A DNA stretch of 64,000 nt from Leptotrichia trevisanii DSM 22070. Its GTDB lineage: Bacteria > Fusobacteriota > Fusobacteriia > Fusobacteriales > Leptotrichiaceae. The notes beneath the pieces were generated by a model. The model saw only the letters and a list, made by a program, of their open reading frames with translations. It ran no database searches and was not told where the DNA came from. The DNA lies in contig NZ_AXVL01000019.1 of the NCBI RefSeq assembly GCF_000482505.1, positions 1 to 64,000 of the forward strand, in the 5' to 3' direction. A program made the position numbers and the translations under genes. Each line of letters opens with the position of its first letter. Positions within the stretch are counted from its first letter, which is position 1. This document shows positions 5,345-64,000 of this stretch, one piece after another.

Positions 5345-5369
5345 TATTTAAAATAAAATTTTTTTACCT

Positions 5370-5710
5370 TATACTAAACCCCATTTAAATAACGAATTTA
5401 TTACAAATTTTTCTAATAAAGGATATAAACCTAATATTTTCAAGTAATTTAAGATATAATTTTTATTTTTTAAACAGAGTTTAGTATAATTAATCCGTCG
5501 GAGCATTTTTCTGTGCTGGCAAAACTGTTTGAGCATAGCGAGTCTTTTGTCAGTGCAGAAAAATGTCGTAGACTAGCCATAGGTTGTAGGATTTGTGGCA
5601 ATGAGCAATCCTACGAATATAAAAAATAAAAAAGTTGAATGATTATGAATTAGCTATTGAACAATTCTATTATAAAAATTTATTCTCATTTTTAAACGGG
5701 GTTTAGTATA
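5370..5710. mobile_element. MITE-like region with TATACTAAACCCC inverted ends
   Basis: The gene-free stretch 5345-5845 holds a non-coding element. Its left end TATACTAAACCCCATTTAAA (5370-5389) is matched 19 of 20 by the reverse complement of the right end at 5691-5710. A third, inward copy of the end (5469-5489, in right-end orientation, with more mismatches) closes a smaller unit of about 120 bp, 5370-5489, almost the same size as the related element at 17607-17728. The remainder holds a two-hairpin unit (5504-5616) of a different repeat family. It may be one element that took in another, or two elements side by side. It has no reading frame. Confidence 0.65.
5504..5616 (+). repeat. single two-hairpin unit (TGTTTGAGC...AGCGAGT family)
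   Basis: Hairpin A pairs CATTTTTCTG (5504-5513) with CAGAAAAATG (5556-5565) and, inside it, CTGGCAAAA with TTTTGTCAG, leaving a loop with TGTTTGAGCATAGCGAGT. Hairpin B pairs GTAGGATT (5586-5593) with AATCCTAC (5607-5614), with a loop TGTGGCAATGAGC. The same two loops, on quite different stems, occur twice in each of the large elements at 23521-23984 and 57518-57953. This is a solo half-copy. Confidence 0.7.
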
Positions 5711-5845
5711 AAAAAGACTACTTTACAATAGACCTGTTCAACAACCTAAGTTTTTTTATTTTCACAAGGGGTCAAGATCCCTTGCTTCAGAAGATTGGTT
5801 TTATCAAATTCTAAATGCATATAGTTTTCTAACAAGTCTAATAAG

Positions 5846-5869
5846 AAAAAAGCCAGTATTTCTACCAGC
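5846..5869 (-). terminator. terminator overlapping the stop codon of the last DUF2207 gene
   Basis: On the minus strand GCTGGTA, loop GAAA, then TACTGGC and six T. The stem (two G-U pairs) includes the final Trp codon and the TAG stop. The same arrangement, weaker, is seen at the ends of the two upstream paralogs. Confidence 0.55.
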
Positions 5870-7754
5870 TTCCTCCACCTCCCCCGCCGGAACCTCCGCC
5901 AGAGAAACCGCCCCCACTAAAGAAGCCGCCTCCGCCTGAGCCACTCTTGGATGAACTAAATTTTTCACTCATTATTTGCGATTTTCCACTGCTGTAACTT
6001 CTTGAAAATGCGTTCGTAAAACTGTAGTTGTTATAGGCGTGCATATGAGTGTGGCTATTTATATAAGATTCATTTATGTCGAAGTTGTATAATTTTATTG
6101 TTTTTTTCATTAATTTTATCGCCTCATTTTTTACTCCAAGTGCTACTGCAAAAGGCAAAATTCCATTAAAATATTCGATTAATTCCTTTACATTGTCAAA
6201 TTTTCTTATCTGATTCTCTTCCGCTGTTTTTATATACATTTTCATACCTTTCAGGTATTCTTTTTTTCTCAGCCCTTCATTTGTATATTTTCCAATTAAT
6301 TTTGCATAAATAATAAATAATGCTACAAAATATGTTACAAAAACAAAAATTTCAATTCCCTGATAAAAAGCCATCCCTAAAACCGCTATAATTATTACTC
6401 CCATTAACAGTTTTTTACTAACAGTTATCCAAATTCTATGAAAAAATGATCCTAACACTATAAACACATACAATATTATAAAAGGATTGAAAATCTCAAA
6501 ATTTGTCTGTGAAAATATAAAAATCATAAAAATAGGAATTACAAAATAAAATGGAACTAAAAAACTGCCATTGTTTTTATAAATTAGTCTATGATATTTT
6601 CCCTTCAAAATTTTAATAATGCTATTTCCAGTATTATAAAGCTGTTTTTCATTATCAAAAATATTATTCTTTTTTGAAGAAAGAGCATCAAATAGCATTC
6701 TTTCCTCTTCCGACAGTTCTGTTTTCTGTGTATACACTGTCTTAGATTCCTTGTTATATTTAATTTCACCATTAATTTTTTTGGCTACTATAAAACCTTT
6801 TGACAGTAATGTAAATATTCCTGCATTTAATATTTCCGCTATGTCCCTTTCACCATTTATATATGCTGCAAACATCGGAGAAATGTCTTTCGGCAAATTA
6901 AATTCTGGAATTATAGATTTTCCTTGCGGATCCCTTCCAAAAAGATTCCACGTTATGATTGAATAAATTGTAAGAAATAATAACAAAAATGGCAAAATTA
7001 TTACTGCAGGATTGGAAAGATATACAATTTGCAGCTTATCTGCCAAAGTCGGACTTATCTTATCTGTTTTTAAATTTAGCATAAATGTAAGTCCATTATT
7101 AGCCTCCAATTCTCTAGTTCCAATATTTATTTCCCCGTTATTTTCTGAAACGCCATAATTTTCGTCTTTTTCTCCATAACTTCCAGTATAAACTTCCAAT
7201 TTTTCAATTTCATTTTTTTTGATTTCCTGTCCATCAGGAAACCTTATAGTAACGTTTGCCTCTTCAATCGGAACATTCCAGAACTGTCCAATTGCATTGT
7301 AGTAAATCTGATAAATTCCATCCTTTTCAAACACAGCATTATAAATATCGTAATTCAGCTCATATCTGCTCCCAATCCTGTCCAAATTTACAAGCTTTGT
7401 TTTGGAACCTATTCTGTACCTTATCCCTTCATAGAAATGATTTTTCGTATACTCTTCGTCCTCTCCATCTCTTTTTATCCAATTCATTTTGATAAAAGAC
7501 TTATGAACATCAAATCCAAACCTTTTTGAACGCAAAGGAATATCTCTATAAATTCCGTGCTTAGGCTCTTCGCCAAACTGGTAATCAATCACTTCATTTA
7601 CTGTCAAAGTCCCATTTTTATTAATTTGCACTGTAACTTCATAATTTCTTATTTTTTCACTATGCAATATTACTGCAGCAAGCCTGCTTGAATTAAATAA
7701 AAACATCACCATGAATATAAATAATATTGAAAATTTTTTATTTTGAAATATCAT
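5862..7754 (-). CDS. DUF2207-family membrane protein, paralog 1
   Basis: A 630-residue protein: a hydrophobic signal segment (about residues 8-29), an extracytoplasmic DUF2207 domain (about 35-235, with the family-like stretch HGIYRDIP near residue 66), a membrane helix (about 248-270, ending TWNLFGRD), a cytoplasmic-type region, further helices at about 395-475 and a Gly/Ser-rich tail ending GGGGGGSW. The tail and fold are standard for the family; function is unknown, but envelope location and linkage to LemA are recurrent. It is the last gene of the DUF2339-DUF3999-LemA-DUF2207 cluster. Its first 57 codons and 5' flank are almost identical to those of the next paralog, pointing to recent duplication or conversion. 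Confidence 0.85.
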   Translation of the reverse strand: MIFQNKKFSILFIFMVMFLFNSSRLAAVILHSEKIRNYEVTVQINKNGTLTVNEVIDYQFGEEPKHGIYRDIPLRSKRFGFDVHKSFIKMNWIKRDGEDEEYTKNHFYEGIRYRIGSKTKLVNLDRIGSRYELNYDIYNAVFEKDGIYQIYYNAIGQFWNVPIEEANVTIRFPDGQEIKKNEIEKLEVYTGSYGEKDENYGVSENNGEINIGTRELEANNGLTFMLNLKTDKISPTLADKLQIVYLSNPAVIILPFLLLFLTIYSIITWNLFGRDPQGKSIIPEFNLPKDISPMFAAYINGERDIAEILNAGIFTLLSKGFIVAKKINGEIKYNKESKTVYTQKTELSEEERMLFDALSSKKNNIFDNEKQLYNTGNSIIKILKGKYHRLIYKNNGSFLVPFYFVIPIFMIFIFSQTNFEIFNPFIILYVFIVLGSFFHRIWITVSKKLLMGVIIIAVLGMAFYQGIEIFVFVTYFVALFIIYAKLIGKYTNEGLRKKEYLKGMKMYIKTAEENQIRKFDNVKELIEYFNGILPFAVALGVKNEAIKLMKKTIKLYNFDINESYINSHTHMHAYNNYSFTNAFSRSYSSGKSQIMSEKFSSSKSGSGGGGFFSGGGFSGGGSGGGGGGSW

Positions 7755-7863: not shown

Positions 7864-9816
7864 CTACCAGCTTCCTCCACCTCCCCCGCCGGAACCTCCA
7901 CCAGAGAAGCCACCACCACTTGAGAATCCGCCTCCGCCAAAACCGCTTCCGCTTGAATTTCTGGAATTTTCTCTCAAAGTGCTGAATCTTTCTTCTGTTA
8001 TTTTATTATATGCATTTTCGTATCCTCTTGAAACCATGTTTGACAAAAAGAAATTATTGTATGTATTAAAATGCACTCCTCTATTTATGTAAGAATATGT
8101 ACTTTCATCAAAATCATAAAGTTTTATTGTATTCTTCATAAGTTTTACTGCTTCATTTTTTACTCCAAGAGCTACCGCATAAGGCAATATCCCTTTAAAA
8201 TAGGCTACCAGCTCATCTACATCGTTAAATTTCATAATCTGATTAGCTTCAGCAGTCTTTATGTACATTTTCATGCCATCCAAGTATTCTTTTTTTCTCA
8301 TTCCATCAACAGTATATTTTCCAATTATTTTTGAATAAACAGTATACATTGCCATAATTATTCCAATTACAATGAAATTTAAAACTCCATATATTACTGA
8401 AATAAACAATATTGTTATCCATTTAATAACTTTCAAAAATGTACTGTTATTCCCGTAAATATTCTTTATAATTGAAAAAATCATATTTAAAAGTATACCA
8501 AAGAAACTAGCAATCATAATTAACGAAACTACTCCAAAATCGCTATCAGATACTCTTGTCGTTCCACTGCTTGCTGTTGATGAAACCATAAAAACTACAA
8601 TTATACCGATAATAAATGCGATATTAAAAATGCTGTTATCCCTGTAAACTTTCTTTTTATACTCTTTTTCAAATAATCCCAATATTTTATTTGAGGCATC
8701 GTAAAGGCTTCTTTCTCTTTTGAATATATACCCAGTATCAGAAAGAGCGTTAAAAACAATCTTTTCCTCTTCTGCTAGTTCAAGCTTGCTCCTTTTACTG
8801 TTAGACAATGTATATTTTACATTTTTTCCATTACCTTCCTCATCATCAGCTTCAACATAACTTTTAGAAAGCAATGAAAGCACTCCGATTGTTAATATTT
8901 CTTTTGGTCCTCTTTCTCCATTGATGTAAGCCGCATACATGGCAGAAATATCCTTTGGTATGTTAAATTCAGGAACAATTGCCTTTTTACCCACATCTCT
9001 TCCAAATATATACCACGTTATAAATCCATAAATTGCCAGAAGTATTATTACAAGAGGCCCTACAGCAATTAAAGGATAAGCATAATAAAGTGTTTGTAAC
9101 TTATCCCAAAATGTTGGGCTTATATTATCCGTCTTTAAATTCAGACGAAAACTTAATCCATTATATGCCTCTAAAACCTTATTTGTTTTAATTTCAACAG
9201 TTCCATTATTCAAATTTGTAATATAATCTTTCCCACTTTGTCCATATTCACCTGTAAAAATATCTAATTGCCTAATTTCATTTTTTAAAACAGGTTCTCC
9301 ATTCCCAAATTTTATATTTACCGTAGCTTTTTCAATAGGAACTTGCCAAAATTGACCAATCGCATTAAAGTAAACCTGATAAATTCCATTTTTTTCAAAT
9401 ACTGCATTATAAATCACATAATTAAATTCGTATCTATTTATGCCATTTTCCACAAACCTGTCTGCAGAACCAACTCTATATCTAATCCCTTCATCAAAAA
9501 GTTTTGTAGAGTATTCTTCAGAAAAACCATTTCTCTTTATCGAATTCATTTTTATATAAGATTTGTAAATATCCACACCATTTTTCTTTGAACGTACTGG
9601 AATATCCCTATAAATCCCATGTTTTGCCGCACCGTCAAATTCATAGTCAATCACTTCATTTACAGTCAGTGTCCCATTTCTATTAATTTGCACTGTAACT
9701 TCATAATTTCTTATTTTTTCACTATGCAATATTACTGCATCAAGCCTGCTTGAATTAAATAAAAACATCACCATAAATATAAATAATATTGAAAATTTTT
9801 TATTTTGAAATATCAT
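7864..9816 (-). CDS. DUF2207-family membrane protein, paralog 2
   Basis: A 650-residue protein with the same plan as its neighbours: signal segment, DUF2207 ectodomain (HGIYRDIP near residue 66), membrane helix before TWYIFGRD, second hydrophobic block at about 395-485 and a tail ending SGGGSGGGGGGSW. The N-terminal 50 residues differ from paralog 1 at only a few sites, while the middle hydrophobic block has diverged strongly, so homogenisation seems confined to the 5' end. AAGGA precedes the ATG by about 11 bases. There are 109 bases to paralog 1, and this spacer is itself similar to the spacer upstream. Function unknown; probably an envelope protein. Confidence 0.85.
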   Translation of the reverse strand: MIFQNKKFSILFIFMVMFLFNSSRLDAVILHSEKIRNYEVTVQINRNGTLTVNEVIDYEFDGAAKHGIYRDIPVRSKKNGVDIYKSYIKMNSIKRNGFSEEYSTKLFDEGIRYRVGSADRFVENGINRYEFNYVIYNAVFEKNGIYQVYFNAIGQFWQVPIEKATVNIKFGNGEPVLKNEIRQLDIFTGEYGQSGKDYITNLNNGTVEIKTNKVLEAYNGLSFRLNLKTDNISPTFWDKLQTLYYAYPLIAVGPLVIILLAIYGFITWYIFGRDVGKKAIVPEFNIPKDISAMYAAYINGERGPKEILTIGVLSLLSKSYVEADDEEGNGKNVKYTLSNSKRSKLELAEEEKIVFNALSDTGYIFKRERSLYDASNKILGLFEKEYKKKVYRDNSIFNIAFIIGIIVVFMVSSTASSGTTRVSDSDFGVVSLIMIASFFGILLNMIFSIIKNIYGNNSTFLKVIKWITILFISVIYGVLNFIVIGIIMAMYTVYSKIIGKYTVDGMRKKEYLDGMKMYIKTAEANQIMKFNDVDELVAYFKGILPYAVALGVKNEAVKLMKNTIKLYDFDESTYSYINRGVHFNTYNNFFLSNMVSRGYENAYNKITEERFSTLRENSRNSSGSGFGGGGFSSGGGFSGGGSGGGGGGSW

Positions 9817-9923: not shown

Positions 9924-11876
9924 CTACCAGCTTTCTCCACCTCCTCCCCCGGAACCACCACCGGAGAAGCCACCATCACTTGAGAATCCGCCTTCACTTG
10001 CACCCATTTCTTCTCTTACTTTATCATACTCTCTTGAAATTGTATTTAACAGGAATTTGCTATCATACGAATCATAGTAAACTCTTCTGTTTATTTCCTC
10101 CTGTATATTTTCATCAAAATTATATAGGTTTATCGTATTTTTTAACAATTTTATCGCTTTATTCTTGACTCCGAGAGCAACTGCATAAGGTAAAATCCCT
10201 TTGAAATATTCCACAAGTTCATCTACATCATTAAATTTCATAATCTGATTTGCTTCGGCAGTTTTTATATACATTTTCATTCCATCAAGATGCTCTTCCT
10301 GTCTTAGACTTTTCTCCATGTATTTTTTCATAAGTTTAGAATAAATTATATACATTGCCGGAATGATTCCTATAATAACACCTATTATCCCTGTTTTTAT
10401 TAGCAGAAGTATTGCTATCCCTCCTTTTAAAATGGCAAGAAATATTTTTCTTTCTGAAAACAGGTTCTCTATAAAAATATAAATAACTGCTGCAATACCA
10501 CACGAAATAAGAAAATTAAATGCTACAAAAGCTATATCATCAAATAATCCATTTGCCCGGGAATTTGTTCCTCTGTTAATCATTCCTACAGTAATAACTA
10601 AAACCATTCCCAAAATAAAAGGATATGAGAATTTATCATTAGTTTCATATGCCCTCGACTTATATTTACTTTCAAGCATACTCATTATATTTTGTGAAGC
10701 TTCATAAAGATTCTTTTCATCTTCAAATCCACTCTTTCTATCTTTTTGATAACTGAAATAACTTTTATCTTTTTTAAATATATTCTCTTCATCATCTGAA
10801 AGTGCATTAAGAAGAGTCGCCTCTTCAGTTGAAAGTTCAGGATTTCCTTCAGTATTTGCTACGAGCCTGTATTTTACATTCTTTCCGTTTCCTTCTTTGT
10901 CCTCCGCTGTTACATAGCCTTTTGAAAGAAGTGACAGCATTCCTATCGTCAGGATTTCTTTAGGATTTTTCACACCTTTGATATATCCGGCATACATGGC
11001 AGAAATATTCTTCGGTATATTAAATTCAGGAACAATCGCTTTTCTTAAAGAAACCGGTCTAAACAGTAACCATGTTACAAATCCATATATGAAGAGCACT
11101 AAAATTACTACAGAGCCTACTGCAACAAGAGGGACTGCATAGTAAAGAACTTTCAGTTTATCAAGCCATGTAGGATTTATTTTATCTGTCTTTAAATTCA
11201 GACGGAAAGTCATTCCGTTAAGCGGTTCCAGAACTTCATTAGTTTTTATTTTTATAATCCCGCTTTTCTGAACTATAGTATAATTTTCTCCAGTTTCTCC
11301 ATATTTCCCTGTAAATACTTTCAGCTGCTGAATTTCATTTTCTTCTATAGGTTGATTATTTTCAAAACTTATAATAACGTCTCCACTTTCAATGGGAACT
11401 TTCCAGAACTGTCCTATCGGATTGAAATATACCTGATAAATTCCGTCCTTTTCAAATACCGCATTATACATTGTATAATTAAACTCATATTTGCTTACAC
11501 CTGAATCCACATATTTATCTTCAGAACCTATCTTATAAGCTATTTCTCCAGAAGATTTTTTAGTTTTATATTTTTCAGGTTCACCATTTCTTTTTACAGA
11601 ATTCATCTTTACATGGGATTTATAAATATCTATTCCGCTTTTTTTTGAGCGCAGGGGAATCCTTCTAATAATCCCACGCCTATCAAGTTTATCACCAAAA
11701 TCGTAATCTATTATTTCATTTATTGTCAATGTTCCATTTTTATTAATCTGTATTGAGACATCATATTTTTTTATTGCCTCAGCGATTAACAAACTGACAT
11801 TCAGAAAAAATAACGTGAAAAATACAAAAAATTTAGAAAAAATACTCTTCCATTCTCGGTTGCTAAAACTTTTCAT
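9924..11876 (-). CDS. DUF2207-family membrane protein, paralog 3
   Basis: A protein of 650 residues when started at MKSFSNREW; GGAAGG lies 8 bases before this ATG, so the longer upstream frame (to 11921) is not used here. It has the same domain order as paralogs 1 and 2: signal segment (about residues 12-32), DUF2207 ectodomain, helix before TWLLFRP, an extra charged insert (about 355-395) in the cytoplasmic region, a hydrophobic block (about 415-500) and a tail ending SGGGSGGGGGESW. It is the most diverged of the three intact copies. It follows the decayed fourth copy, whose readable remnant ends 51 bases upstream. Confidence 0.83.
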   Translation of the reverse strand: MKSFSNREWKSIFSKFFVFFTLFFLNVSLLIAEAIKKYDVSIQINKNGTLTINEIIDYDFGDKLDRRGIIRRIPLRSKKSGIDIYKSHVKMNSVKRNGEPEKYKTKKSSGEIAYKIGSEDKYVDSGVSKYEFNYTMYNAVFEKDGIYQVYFNPIGQFWKVPIESGDVIISFENNQPIEENEIQQLKVFTGKYGETGENYTIVQKSGIIKIKTNEVLEPLNGMTFRLNLKTDKINPTWLDKLKVLYYAVPLVAVGSVVILVLFIYGFVTWLLFRPVSLRKAIVPEFNIPKNISAMYAGYIKGVKNPKEILTIGMLSLLSKGYVTAEDKEGNGKNVKYRLVANTEGNPELSTEEATLLNALSDDEENIFKKDKSYFSYQKDRKSGFEDEKNLYEASQNIMSMLESKYKSRAYETNDKFSYPFILGMVLVITVGMINRGTNSRANGLFDDIAFVAFNFLISCGIAAVIYIFIENLFSERKIFLAILKGGIAILLLIKTGIIGVIIGIIPAMYIIYSKLMKKYMEKSLRQEEHLDGMKMYIKTAEANQIMKFNDVDELVEYFKGILPYAVALGVKNKAIKLLKNTINLYNFDENIQEEINRRVYYDSYDSKFLLNTISREYDKVREEMGASEGGFSSDGGFSGGGSGGGGGESW

Positions 11877-11927
11877 AGTAATTTCCTTCCAATATCTCGT
11901 TTGTAAATATCTCATTCCCAAACGATT

Positions 11928-23520: not shown

Positions 23521-23984
23521 GATTAGTAACTATTTTTTTATAATTTATATATTTTTTCTTTTTATTAAAGCAAAGGGGAACAATCGCCATCCCCTTTGCA
23601 ATCCCCGCTCGTCTAAGCATTTTTTGAAAACAAAAATTAAACTTGCTTCGCTCAAACAGTAATTTTTATTTCCAAAAAATCACGACATTTCTGATTCAAT
23701 TATAATAATTATTTTACTTATTATTTTCATGAATATAATAAAAAATTTTTTATAAATTTCCGAGATTTTAATTTTTCAGTAAAAGACAACATGTTTGAGC
23801 TTTTCTGTTATATTTAAATTAAATAACAACCTTATGAAATTAAAATAACTTTTGTTAAAAGCGAGTTTTGTCTTTTGCTGTAAAATTGAAATTCGAGAAG
23901 CGGGAGTGCAGAGGTATGGCGTTTGATACCTCTGCTTTAAAAAAATTAATATAAATAAAAATAAGAAAAAAACTATTATTAATC
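23521..23984. mobile_element. structured REPIN/MITE-like element, copy 1
   Basis: This fills the gene-free stretch between speA and speD. Imperfect inverted ends GATTAGTAACTATTTTTTT (left) and GATTAATAATAGTTTTTTT (reverse complement of the right end) flank four hairpins. H1: 23570-23579 with 23590-23599, loop ACAATCGCCA. H2: AAAAATTA 23632-23639 with TAATTTTT 23660-23667. H3: 23777-23789 with 23868-23880. H4: 23908-23917 with 23926-23935, loop GGCGTTTG. H1/H2 are the reverse-complement counterparts of H4/H3. Copy 2 at 57518-57953 keeps every stem with different bases. No coding frame. Confidence 0.8.
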
Positions 23985-57517: not shown

Positions 57518-57953
57518 GTTAATAAACATTTTTTCTATATTTTATATTTTTTTCTTTTTCTATACGTAAAGGGGATCAATCGCCATCCCCTTTACAATCC
57601 CCGCTCGTCTAAGCATTTTTTGAAAACAAAATCGAAACTCGCTACGTAAAACTTCGCTCAAACAATCGATTTTATTTCCAAAAAATCACGACAATTTTAA
57701 TTTAGTTATAACAACTATTCTAATTAAAAGATTTTCGAGCAAAATTTCGTTAGAAGAAAAATAGCTGTTTGAGCTTTTGAAATATTTTTTAATTATACAT
57801 ATTTATTTAGATATAAAATAATTTTTGTTCAAAAGCGAGTTCTATTTTTCTTTTATAAGAAAGTTTTGCGGTAAGCGGGGTTGTAAGGGCATGGCGTCTG
57901 ATGCCCTTACGTTAGAAAAGATTAAAATTATAAAAGAAAAAACTATTATTAAT
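57518..57953. mobile_element. structured REPIN/MITE-like element, copy 2
   Basis: It fills the 606-base gene-free stretch upstream of mutS. H1: GTAAAGGGGA (57566-57575) with TCCCCTTTAC (57586-57595), loop TCAATCGCCA. H2: AAAATCGA (57628-57635) with TCGATTTT (57666-57673). H3: AGAAGAAAAATAG (57752-57764) with CTATTTTTCTTTT (57842-57854). H4: GTAAGGGCAT (57883-57892) with ATGCCCTTAC (57901-57910), loop GGCGTCTG. Ends TTAATAAACATTTTTTCT and ATTAATAATAGTTTTTTCT (reverse complement) are imperfect inverted repeats. No coding frame. See copy 1 at 23521-23984. Confidence 0.8.
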
Positions 57954-62274: not shown

Positions 62275-63210
62275 CTACACCAACTCATACTCAATCTCAT
62301 TTTTAATACAAAATTTCACTATTTTTTTATAAAAAGTTTCATAATCCTCATCCTTTCCAGAATTTTTAGAGGTAATTAGTGTATAAACCTTTTTTTCATT
62401 ATTTCCAAAAATTTTTAATATTCTGTATCCAAAATCTATTGTTTCACTTTTTGTATTCGGACTTGTAATCATCAACTTTTTTATATCATACTTACTGTAT
62501 TTTTCATTATCAATACTTATAAAATTACTAAATATTTTTATAATTTTCGGTGTATAAATTTTCATTCTAATTAAAGAAATAATTTCTAAAATAATAACTC
62601 CCAAAGGAATAATTATCACAAAATATTTCAAAAAAATAGCATGATAATATATTATTTTAAATATTATCAAAGCAAAAATTACCCCAATAGCATTATTTTT
62701 AAAAATATCTTTGAATTTTTCTACAAGTAATTCCTTTTTTGGAATTTCAAATACTGTATTTTCAATTTCGTTTTTTTCAAGTTGAAATTCACAAATAATT
62801 TTTTCAAGTTTTAAGCAATTTTTCTTTCCAAATAAAGAAATAACAACATAACAATAATCTATCGAAAGATATTTAACATCACCATAAAATAAATTATTCT
62901 CGTTAAATATCCTAACATTATCTTTTCCTATTCTCCTGCACCAAACTTCTTTTCCTCTTTCATAATATGTCAAAATACCATCAGAGATTAGGATTTTTTT
63001 ATTAAAAGCATAAATTGATAAAATTAAAAATATTATGATTGAAAGCAGAACAGTTAAAAAGCATTTAAAAAATATTTCATTTATTGAAAAATCCAAAGAA
63101 AATCTCCACCCCCAAAAAAACAATACTGGAATATAAACCAGTCTACACACCATTTTTAATTTCTCTATCCAATGCACTTTAAATACTTGTTCTTTTTCGC
63201 CCAATTTCAT
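62275..63210 (-). CDS. uncharacterised membrane protein, paralog of the next gene
   Basis: A 311-residue protein with two helix pairs (about residues 18-68 and 172-215), each followed by a beta-rich domain with YERGKEVWCRRI and NEKYSKYDIKKLMI, which looks like a duplicated membrane plus PH-like unit. The end FYKKIVKFCIKNEIEYELV is nearly identical to the end of the gene upstream, even at DNA level. AGGAG lies before the ATG. I do not recognise the family beyond this. It may pair with its neighbour, 26 bases away. Confidence 0.6.
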   Translation of the reverse strand: MKLGEKEQVFKVHWIEKLKMVCRLVYIPVLFFWGWRFSLDFSINEIFFKCFLTVLLSIIIFLILSIYAFNKKILISDGILTYYERGKEVWCRRIGKDNVRIFNENNLFYGDVKYLSIDYCYVVISLFGKKNCLKLEKIICEFQLEKNEIENTVFEIPKKELLVEKFKDIFKNNAIGVIFALIIFKIIYYHAIFLKYFVIIIPLGVIILEIISLIRMKIYTPKIIKIFSNFISIDNEKYSKYDIKKLMITSPNTKSETIDFGYRILKIFGNNEKKVYTLITSKNSGKDEDYETFYKKIVKFCIKNEIEYELV

Positions 63211-63236: not shown

Positions 63237-64000
63237 TTACACCAACCTATACTCAATCTCATTTTTAATACAAAATTTCACTATTTCTTTATAAAGACTT
63301 TCATAATTTTCATAAATCATATCTTTTCTGAAATTTTTAAATTCAGAATTTGGACAAGCTCCCAACGTGAATATTCTTTTTCCAAATTTTCCTATTATTT
63401 TTAATCTTCTGATTTTAAAAAGTGTTGTTAAAGTTACTATGTCTGAATTAGTAACTTTAATTTCTTTTATATCAGATTTGTTGTATTCTACATTATCAAT
63501 AATAATCACATCTTTAGTAATTTTTATAGTTCTAGGTGTAAATTTATTTAATTTTATTAGAGAAAATACATTTAAACTAACAATAACCAAATAAACAATC
63601 AAAAAGAAGGCTCTAGCATTTGCATTAACTGCTGCCAATATTAACAATAAAAATGTAACGATTGTATCGACAATGAAATTTCCAAATTTTTCTTTAATTA
63701 ATCTTTCCCTAGGAATTGTAAATAATCTGTTTTTTATTACTGTGTTATTTTTTTTATATTGAATTTCATATATTGCTTTCTCAAGTTCTATACTACCTTT
63801 AAGTCCAAGAGAGTAAATAGGGATTTCAAATTTATTTATCGACATATACTTACATTTGTACCTGCTTCTATAAGCTCTTTTTTCCTTATAGTACGTTTTG
63901 ATATTGCTTCCAGTTATCTTTGCACGATGGTACTCTCTTCCATCTTCATAATAAACTAAAATATCTTTTAAAATTACTACTTTCCGATTAAACTCAAAAT
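63237..64000 (-). CDS. uncharacterised membrane protein, 5' end beyond the window
   Basis: The frame stays open from the stop at 63237 to the right edge, and the part upstream of the internal ATG at 63845 (NRKVVILKDILVYYEDGREY) aligns with NKKILISDGILTYYERGKEV of the neighbouring paralog, so the true start lies outside. Visible parts are one helix pair (about 63600-63690) and two beta-rich PH-like blocks. The end YKEIVKFCIKNEIEYRLV matches the paralog. Function unknown. Confidence 0.65.
   Translation of the reverse strand, partial: FEFNRKVVILKDILVYYEDGREYHRAKITGSNIKTYYKEKRAYRSRYKCKYMSINKFEIPIYSLGLKGSIELEKAIYEIQYKKNNTVIKNRLFTIPRERLIKEKFGNFIVDTIVTFLLLILAAVNANARAFFLIVYLVIVSLNVFSLIKLNKFTPRTIKITKDVIIIDNVEYNKSDIKEIKVTNSDIVTLTTLFKIRRLKIIGKFGKRIFTLGACPNSEFKNFRKDMIYENYESLYKEIVKFCIKNEIEYRLV

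What the first reader, a model, noticed from the sequence alone, without database searches (positions are those of the whole stretch)
5504..5616. Solo half-unit of the hairpin family next to a MITE
Seen directly: two hairpins with loops TGTTTGAGCATAGCGAGT and TGTGGCAATGAGC on new stems (CATTTTTCTG with CAGAAAAATG; GTAGGATT with AATCCTAC), in the same order and orientation as the right halves of the large elements. The linker AAATGTCGTAGACTAGCC is related to the AAATGCTTAGACGAGCGGGG linker of the left halves read in reverse complement. This parallels solo REP versus paired REPIN in other bacteria, and shows that the basic unit is the two-hairpin block.
Basis: partly seen in the sequence, partly recalled or inferred. 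Interest (0 to 1): 0.65.

Follow-up and report, generated by a model that had tools for sequence, protein, structure and literature searches.

The report
Solo capped-hairpin repeat inside a MITE
The stretch is one copy of a two-hairpin repeat, carried here inside a small transposon-like element, whose unusual hairpin tip also sits on unrelated hairpins scattered through the genomes of many very different bacteria, which points to an overlooked, widely shared kind of mobile or structured element.

Summary
The two hairpins are real and belong to the structural family of the large-element halves: a covariance model built from 13 such halves only finds the solo unit (5497-5616) at 64.3 bits, E 2.8e-13, against 21.1 bits without base pairs, and the stems covary. 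So the two-hairpin block is the unit. Corrections: the unit lies inside, not beside, a composite MITE (5369-5711); its stems recur in near-identical type A copies, 17 of 18 examined having MITE ends, so it spread as MITE cargo rather than being a decayed half. Close pairs here are divergent in 10 of 10 cases, as in REPINs, but no REP transposase was found in the genome. Beyond the finding: the hairpin cap ACTGTYTGA-GCGNAGC-GAGTTT sits on unrelated complementary stems in several other phyla (at least 120 stretches, scan stopped at its limit; 93 of 129 sites with 6 or more stem pairs, swapped control mean 1.6). Descent, carrier and mechanism are open; I found no description in print, but key supplements could not be read.

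The parts
5497..5616 (+). two-hairpin unit (type A, short form)
   Evidence: model R1 115.8 bits (contains this copy); model R2, trained on 13 type B halves only, 64.3 bits, E 2.8e-13; sequence-only model R3 21.1 bits
5497..5573 (+). P1: GTC 5497-5499 pairs with GAC 5571-5573 of the linker
   Evidence: type C copies carry GAC with GTC instead: 3 of 24 aligned units changed on both sides
5504..5565 (+). P2: long stem 5504-5524 with 5545-5565
   Evidence: inverted repeat I4; 15 of 22 pairs of this helix changed on both sides across 24 units, 98.7% of cells paired
5524..5545 (+). cap ACTGTTTGA-GCATAGC-GAGTCT with inner 2-bp hairpin 5533-5534 with 5538-5539
   Evidence: the same cap, mostly with a GNA triloop, on unrelated stems in other genera and phyla
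5566..5585 (+). linker with TAGACTAGCC
   Evidence: near-invariant TAGNCNAGC in alignment A1
5586..5614 (+). P4: second hairpin, loop holding GGCAATGA
   Evidence: long copies carry an extra hairpin and helix before it
5369..5711 (.). composite MITE that holds the unit; TIRs 5369-5389 (+), 5469-5489 (-, internal), 5691-5711 (-)
23569..23937 (.). large element 1: left half 23569-23686 (-), right half 23764-23937 (+)
   Evidence: model matches
57565..57912 (.). large element 2: left half 57565-57692 (-), right half 57738-57912 (+)
   Evidence: model matches
5862..7754 (-). gene upstream on the - strand; a separate terminator-like site at 5870-5851 lies at its 3' end, before the unit
   Evidence: no NCBIfam family at E 0.001

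Best explanation
The locus is a solo copy of a non-coding, structure-conserved, interspersed element whose unit is a 5' hairpin with a conserved cap followed by a second hairpin. Shown: it is homologous in structure to the halves of the large elements; three sequence types share the fold with different stems; close pairs are divergent; type A copies lie at a fixed position in a composite TIR MITE. Shown as resemblance, not as descent: the cap also sits on unrelated stems in other bacterial phyla. Inferred: the cap and helix are read as a single strand (ssDNA or RNA) by a protein not yet identified, which is why stems drift freely while the cap does not; type A multiplied as cargo of the MITE, moved in trans by a TIR transposase; the wider family spreads by a route that works like REPIN spread but does not need a RAYT in this genome today.
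For: Type-B-only model finds the solo, and base pairs add 43 bits. Covariation: 24 of 37 pairs changed on both sides, score 0.590 against 0.209 +/- 0.013 shuffled and at most 0.194 slid. Strand-specific pairing: in the P1-P3 pairs of A1, G-T occurs at 13 of 27 pairs and A-C at 0; over 114 cap sites of other phyla 106 G-T and 53 A-C, over 52 sites of further genomes 62 and 24, over 26 Fusobacteriota sites 23 and 14, while 47 other hairpins of the same loci give 17 and 32. Cap: inner 2-bp stem paired in 25 of 25 caps on stems from Fusobacteriota outside the genus, in three forms (AC/GT 12, GC/GC 11, GT/AC 2). Pairs: 10 of 10 divergent here and 15 of 15 among 100 listed places of a Lachnospiraceae genome, 8 of 10 in loci of other genomes. 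MITE ends: 17 of 18 type A units have at least one, 9 have both outer ends, 21 of 27 type B units have none.
Against: No transposase was tied to the element: no PF01797 match in this genome, no PF07282, PF14239 silent but so was its control; cap within the fetched flanks of a Y1 gene in 2 of 30 loci; no recurrent neighbour protein around 120 cap loci. No clean empty site was found, so movement itself is not shown. No bias against GC skew over other phyla (80 of 177, p 0.23), where a lagging-strand mechanism might have left one. Common descent of the cap across phyla is not proved: a 22-nt cap could arise repeatedly.
Confidence: 0.6

Rival explanations
1. A classical REP/REPIN system: short palindromes moved by a REP-associated tyrosine transposase, with solos as decayed halves.
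For: Extragenic, multi-copy, stem-loops, inverted pairs; Y1 genes in 21 of 26 genomes searched.
Against: No Y1 match in the window's genome nor in G008, G026, G038, G091, G101, all of which hold caps or unit matches; cap beside 2 of 30 Y1 loci; units of about 120 to 350 nt instead of 20-40; type A solos not visibly decayed.
Confidence: 0.15
2. A family of structured RNAs transcribed from their own or neighbouring promoters (regulator, scaffold or selfish RNA), the DNA copies being a by-product.
For: G-T pairs without A-C pairs in the units of this genome; complex long forms with extra helices; a CTTGA...TCAAG second module in other phyla that could form a pseudoknot.
Against: No fixed orientation to genes: upstream gene sense 57 and antisense 55 of 112 sites; no Rfam match at the unit; no expression data at hand; promoter-like sites at the locus are not convincing (7 found, 3.1 expected).
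Confidence: 0.25
3. Transcription terminators, mRNA stabilisers or other gene-end signals.
For: Intergenic; convergent gene contexts exceed divergent ones 24 to 9.
Against: No T run after the second hairpin on the unit strand; no preference for the sense strand of the upstream gene; the upstream gene here has a separate terminator-like site.
Confidence: 0.05
4. Only an ordinary MITE family of this genus; likeness to elements elsewhere is convergence on a stable hairpin tip such as d(GCGNAGC).
For: Type A units ride in a MITE; GCGAAGC is an exceptionally stable DNA mini-hairpin (PMC4686876, passages).
Against: The conserved part is 22 nt, well beyond the 7-nt mini-hairpin; pair orientation and, in 24 of 170 sites, a second module in one fixed place recur (0 of 170 in each of three control positions).
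Confidence: 0.2

Closest known systems
REPIN / BIME (paired REP elements) with RAYT transposases (PMC3116915, PMC3733652, PMC6006769; passages read)
   Same: extragenic, many copies, hairpins, inverted pairs as the common higher order
   Different: unit several times longer; the conserved part is the hairpin tip, not a GTAG or CGTC foot; no RAYT found in this genome and caps rarely near Y1 genes; type A solos well conserved
TIR MITEs
   Same: type A copies lie in elements of 331-461 bp with terminal inverted repeats
   Different: type B units, the large elements, mostly lack those ends (21 of 27); a strand-specific fold with covariation is not expected of a plain MITE
Mobile/repeat sequence candidates (MRSC) of the 50-genome noncoding-RNA survey (PMC11109978, passages)
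   Same: structured, many copies, unfixed orientation to genes; that survey includes Leptotrichia buccalis
   Different: the one example described in the passages carries UYCCGG; its supplements could not be read, so this motif may be listed there
d(GCGNAGC) mini-hairpins (PMC4686876, passages)
   Same: GNA triloop on two pairs, as at the tip of most caps outside the genus
   Different: type A here mostly has ATA in the loop; known as a chemical structure, not as a repeat family

Membership tests
family of the large-element halves in this window (types A, B, C) | match to a model of the other type that beats sequence alone | tested here: met
   64.3 bits against 21.1
family of the large-element halves in this window (types A, B, C) | compensatory changes between types | tested here: met
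   24 of 37 pairs
REP/REPIN | RAYT gene in the genome, flanked by the repeats | tested here: not met
   no PF01797 match in the genome; cap in 2 of 30 Y1 loci of other genomes
REP/REPIN | inverted pairs | tested here: met
   10 of 10, 8 of 10 elsewhere; tandem pairs also seen in G095 and G062
REP/REPIN | 20-40 bp palindrome with GTAG or CGTC foot | tested here: not met
   unit of about 120 nt; type A begins CCGTCGG, type C CCGACGG, type B TGTCGTG
REP/REPIN | single copies more diverged than pairs | not tested
   no identity comparison of solos and pairs was made; type A copies are close to each other
TIR MITE | terminal inverted repeats at both ends | tested here: met
   5369-5389 and 5691-5711
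TIR MITE | target-site duplication and empty site | tested here: inconclusive
   ends vary as TTA/TAA; no empty site in 398 kb of one relative
Rfam families | score at or above the gathering threshold | tested here: not met
   window 0 matches; no unit or cap matched

The most novel reading that the evidence does not exclude
The unit is one branch of an ancient, bacteria-wide class of chromosomal elements defined by a conserved hairpin tip on freely drifting stems, often in divergent pairs and sometimes with a fixed second pseudoknot-like hairpin, kept or spread by a widely conserved protein that reads the tip on one strand.
Probability: 0.45. Interest if true: 0.88.

Novelty: new variant of a known kind. 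Interest (0 to 1): 0.7.

Why it matters
Repeat families of this sort are usually described one genus at a time. A tip motif shared by several phyla on unrelated stems gives a single handle (one 22-nt pattern) to count, classify and test them together, and makes a clear question testable: which protein reads this tip, and as DNA or RNA? Locally, it shows how a structured unit can be taken up by a MITE and multiplied, and that such elements differ at the same chromosomal site between related species.

Tried and rejected
RAYT partner: searched by Pfam family in this genome and in 26 others, then looked for caps near the genes; not supported. TnpB and IscB-like partners: no match (the second search had no working control). 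A recurrent neighbour protein around the cap loci of other phyla: the clusters found were mostly spurious reading frames through the repeat itself or a few large shared proteins, none tied to the caps. Rfam at gathering and at relaxed thresholds: nothing at the unit. Plasmids, phages and E. coli genomes: no blastn match to the solo unit in plasmids or phages; elements of other phyla gave only partial matches in a few plasmids, and the one also tried in phages and E. coli gave none there. Viral contigs: 2 stretches with the cap pattern. Lagging-strand bias by local GC skew: not seen overall; in the window's genus 12 of 36, p 0.065, and 11 of 35 with skew above 0.05, p 0.041. Gene-end signal: no sense preference. 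A first attempt to collect units by one regular expression failed (3 units) and was replaced. I also considered a kink-turn in the cap; the bulge does not fit the usual three bases (recalled), so I do not claim it. Searches of papers by cap sequence found nothing relevant, nor did searches by topic beyond the papers cited; one sequence hit, in PMC7072734, is an unrelated construct.

Full report
What is there. The window is contig C10, bases 1-64000, of a 2.85 Mb genome in 78 contigs, GC 31%. I take the genus to be Leptotrichia from composition and recall; no call names it. The finding's two hairpins are present. The unit runs from 5497 to 5616: an outer pairing GTC/GAC, a long stem 5504-5524 with 5545-5565 capped by TGTTTGAGCATAGCGAGT, a linker with TAGACTAGCC, and a second hairpin 5586-5614. 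It folds far better than shuffles (z -4.9).

Same family as the large elements. I aligned 24 short units of this genome: 13 of the type found in the large elements (B), 8 of the type of the finding (A), 3 of a third type (C). The named structure keeps 92.5% of cells paired; 24 of 37 pairs have a change on both sides; the covariation score is 0.590 against 0.209 +/- 0.013 in shuffles, and at most 0.194 when the partners are slid. The second hairpin is the weakest part (76.7% of cells paired) because type A has one bulged base that the alignment does not absorb. Model R1 from these rows scores the solo at 115.8 bits, but it contains that copy. The fair test is model R2, from the 13 type B rows alone: 64.3 bits, E 2.8e-13, full length. 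The same rows without base pairs give 21.1 bits over 5523-5587 only. So structure carries most of the relation.

Copies in the genome. Blastn with the solo gave 53 matching pieces; the R1 search gave 64 matches at E 0.01 or less, from 150 scored of 4595 candidates. Ten neighbouring pairs lie within 800 bases, all 10 in the order minus then plus, so that the 5' ends face each other. That counts 20 paired and 44 solo units, but both large elements of this window appear there with one half only, because their right halves score 35-39 bits; the solo number is an upper bound. Pairs join different types (A with B, B with C, A with C), which shows that the two-hairpin block is the exchangeable unit. 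Long copies of up to about 350 nt (L011, L092, L095) carry further hairpins that the short copies lack; for example AGTGCGTAGCACT plus TTTCGC/GCGAAA in type B corresponds to ATTGCGTAGCAAT plus TCTTGC/GCAAGA in type A, again with compensatory changes (read by eye).

The MITE. The TIR consensus has 63 matches in the genome at up to 2 mismatches. Around 18 type A units, 17 have at least one TIR, 9 have both outer ends, at nearly constant distances (left end about -125, internal copy about -10); of 27 type B units 21 have none, and of 7 type C units 4 have at least one (the units counted are the 52 collected by pattern, not all copies). Short elements of 117-181 bp with the same TIR pair and no unit also occur, most of them being the left part of a composite. 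The simplest history is a solo block captured by a MITE and multiplied with it; this is inference.

Turnover. In 398 kb of a relative of the genus I compared sites with both flanks conserved. Four sites carry the same element in both species (L002, L004, L046, L088; read from continuous alignments). At two sites the elements differ clearly between conserved flanks: L077 has a type B pair where the relative has a type A unit, sharing only the A-rich tail after the block; the C72 site (L012, L041) has A and C units where the relative has type B halves. Three further sites (L028, L057, L076) also differ but are harder to read. I found no clean empty site, so insertion itself is not shown.

Distribution in relatives. 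R1 has matches in 29 of 80 genomes searched: 13 of 13 of the genus (own genome included), 1 of 20 others of the family, 15 of 47 others of the order. The matches outside the genus are weak (best E 2e-5), and reading those fetched shows that most share not the whole unit but the cap: ACTGTYTGA, two inner pairs, a triloop, GAGTTT, on a different long stem. In 25 caps on stems there, the two inner pairs are formed in 25 (AC/GT 12, GC/GC 11, GT/AC 2) and the triloop is purine-N-A in all 25 (GNA in 23) (caps without 5 stem pairs were left out).

Other phyla. By uniform base frequencies I would expect about 0.2 in that collection (my arithmetic, no call). The 80 titles shown name Bacteroidota, Bacillota, Pseudomonadota, deltaproteobacterial groups, Nitrospirota, Gastranaerophilales, a Vogelbacteria genome and a MAG called Thermotoga; many are MAGs, so single labels may be wrong. 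Of 129 sites 93 have at least 6 uninterrupted pairs immediately outside the cap; with arms swapped between loci the mean is 1.57 and the maximum 4 in 200 trials; there are 87 distinct 8-nt stems. In 40 genomes chosen because they were hit or are relatives (so a biased set), a looser pattern is found in 39, with up to 133 copies (a Lachnospiraceae), 60 (Ralstonia), 51 (a Nitrospirae MAG) and 47 (Arcicella); the pattern read backwards is found in 3 of 40 (1, 23 and 3 copies; the 23 are unexplained). Close pairs: 15 of 15 minus-plus among the 100 places listed for the Lachnospiraceae, 8 of 10 in the loci (L206 is plus-plus, L235 minus-minus beside a run of N); tandem pairs also occur in G095 and G062, so the rule is strong but not universal. 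In 24 of 170 sites a second module, CTTGA followed by a hairpin with TCAAG in its loop, follows the cap hairpin on the same strand, most often 49-54 bases on; none of 170 in each of three control positions. The 24 include near-copies.

DNA or RNA. If the copies were decaying palindromes, G-T and A-C mismatches on the cap strand should be equal. In the aligned units, G-T stands at 13 of 27 pairs of P1-P3 and A-C at none; the three types are few independent lineages, so this is suggestive. In 114 cap sites of other phyla it is 106 to 53, in 52 sites of further genomes 62 to 24, in 26 Fusobacteriota sites 23 to 14, and in 47 other hairpins of the same loci 17 to 32. So the cap strand seems to be the one that matters, as RNA or single-stranded DNA. 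For DNA speaks the GCGNAGC tip, known as a very stable DNA mini-hairpin (PMC4686876, passages); for RNA the wobble pairs. I cannot decide.

What it does not look like. Orientation to genes is free: the upstream gene is sense in 57 and antisense in 55 of 112 sites; convergent contexts exceed divergent ones 24 to 9 (15 sites inside long reading frames and sites without near flanking genes were set aside). No Y1 transposase was found in this genome (the search rang in 5 of 14 control genomes), nor in 5 of 26 others, and caps lie near 2 of 30 Y1 loci. No Rfam match at a unit or cap.

Print. Searches for the cap letters and for the topic in the held open library gave nothing on this motif. I read passages of PMC3733652, PMC6006769, PMC3116915, PMC11109978, PMC4686876 and PMC7072734. 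PMC11109978 surveyed L. buccalis and has a class of mobile/repeat candidates; its supplements were out of reach, so it may hold this family. My verdict on novelty is therefore cautious.

Verdict. Observation confirmed; interpretation partly supported. Locally the locus is a MITE-borne solo unit of a well-supported structural family. Its wider meaning is the cap shared across phyla, for which mechanism and common origin are open.

Noticed in passing
window 5862-7754, 7864-9816, 9924-11921 (-): Three tandem paralogous genes of 630-665 codons, 61-91% alike in blocks of DNA; the first and second have no NCBIfam match, the third was not scanned. The first ends in a glycine/serine-rich tail.
   Followed up: partly
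window 62275-63210 and 63237-63845 (-): Two neighbouring genes share a 76-base stretch 91% alike at their 3' ends.
   Followed up: no
L410 10388-10782 against L077; L409 against L041: At orthologous intergenic sites of two species of the genus, different types of the element sit between conserved flanks, as if swapped.
   Followed up: partly
genome G092 (locus L237): The cap pattern read backwards, meant as a control, also has 23 matches in this genome with 133 caps; unexplained.
   Followed up: no
L235, L253, L277, L281: In Ralstonia and a Pasteurellaceae genome the cap hairpin is followed by a second hairpin and then a third part with GTCGCC and GAAAC, so the element may have three parts there (read by eye).
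   Followed up: no
genome G095 (locus L249): Eleven matches to the Y1 transposase family, most in reading frames of 220-320 codons, in a genome with 18 caps; the two fetched loci have no cap nearby.
   Followed up: partly
window 5870-5851 (-): Terminator-like hairpin with a T run at the end of gene 5862-7754; 1 found, 0.1 expected.
   Followed up: no
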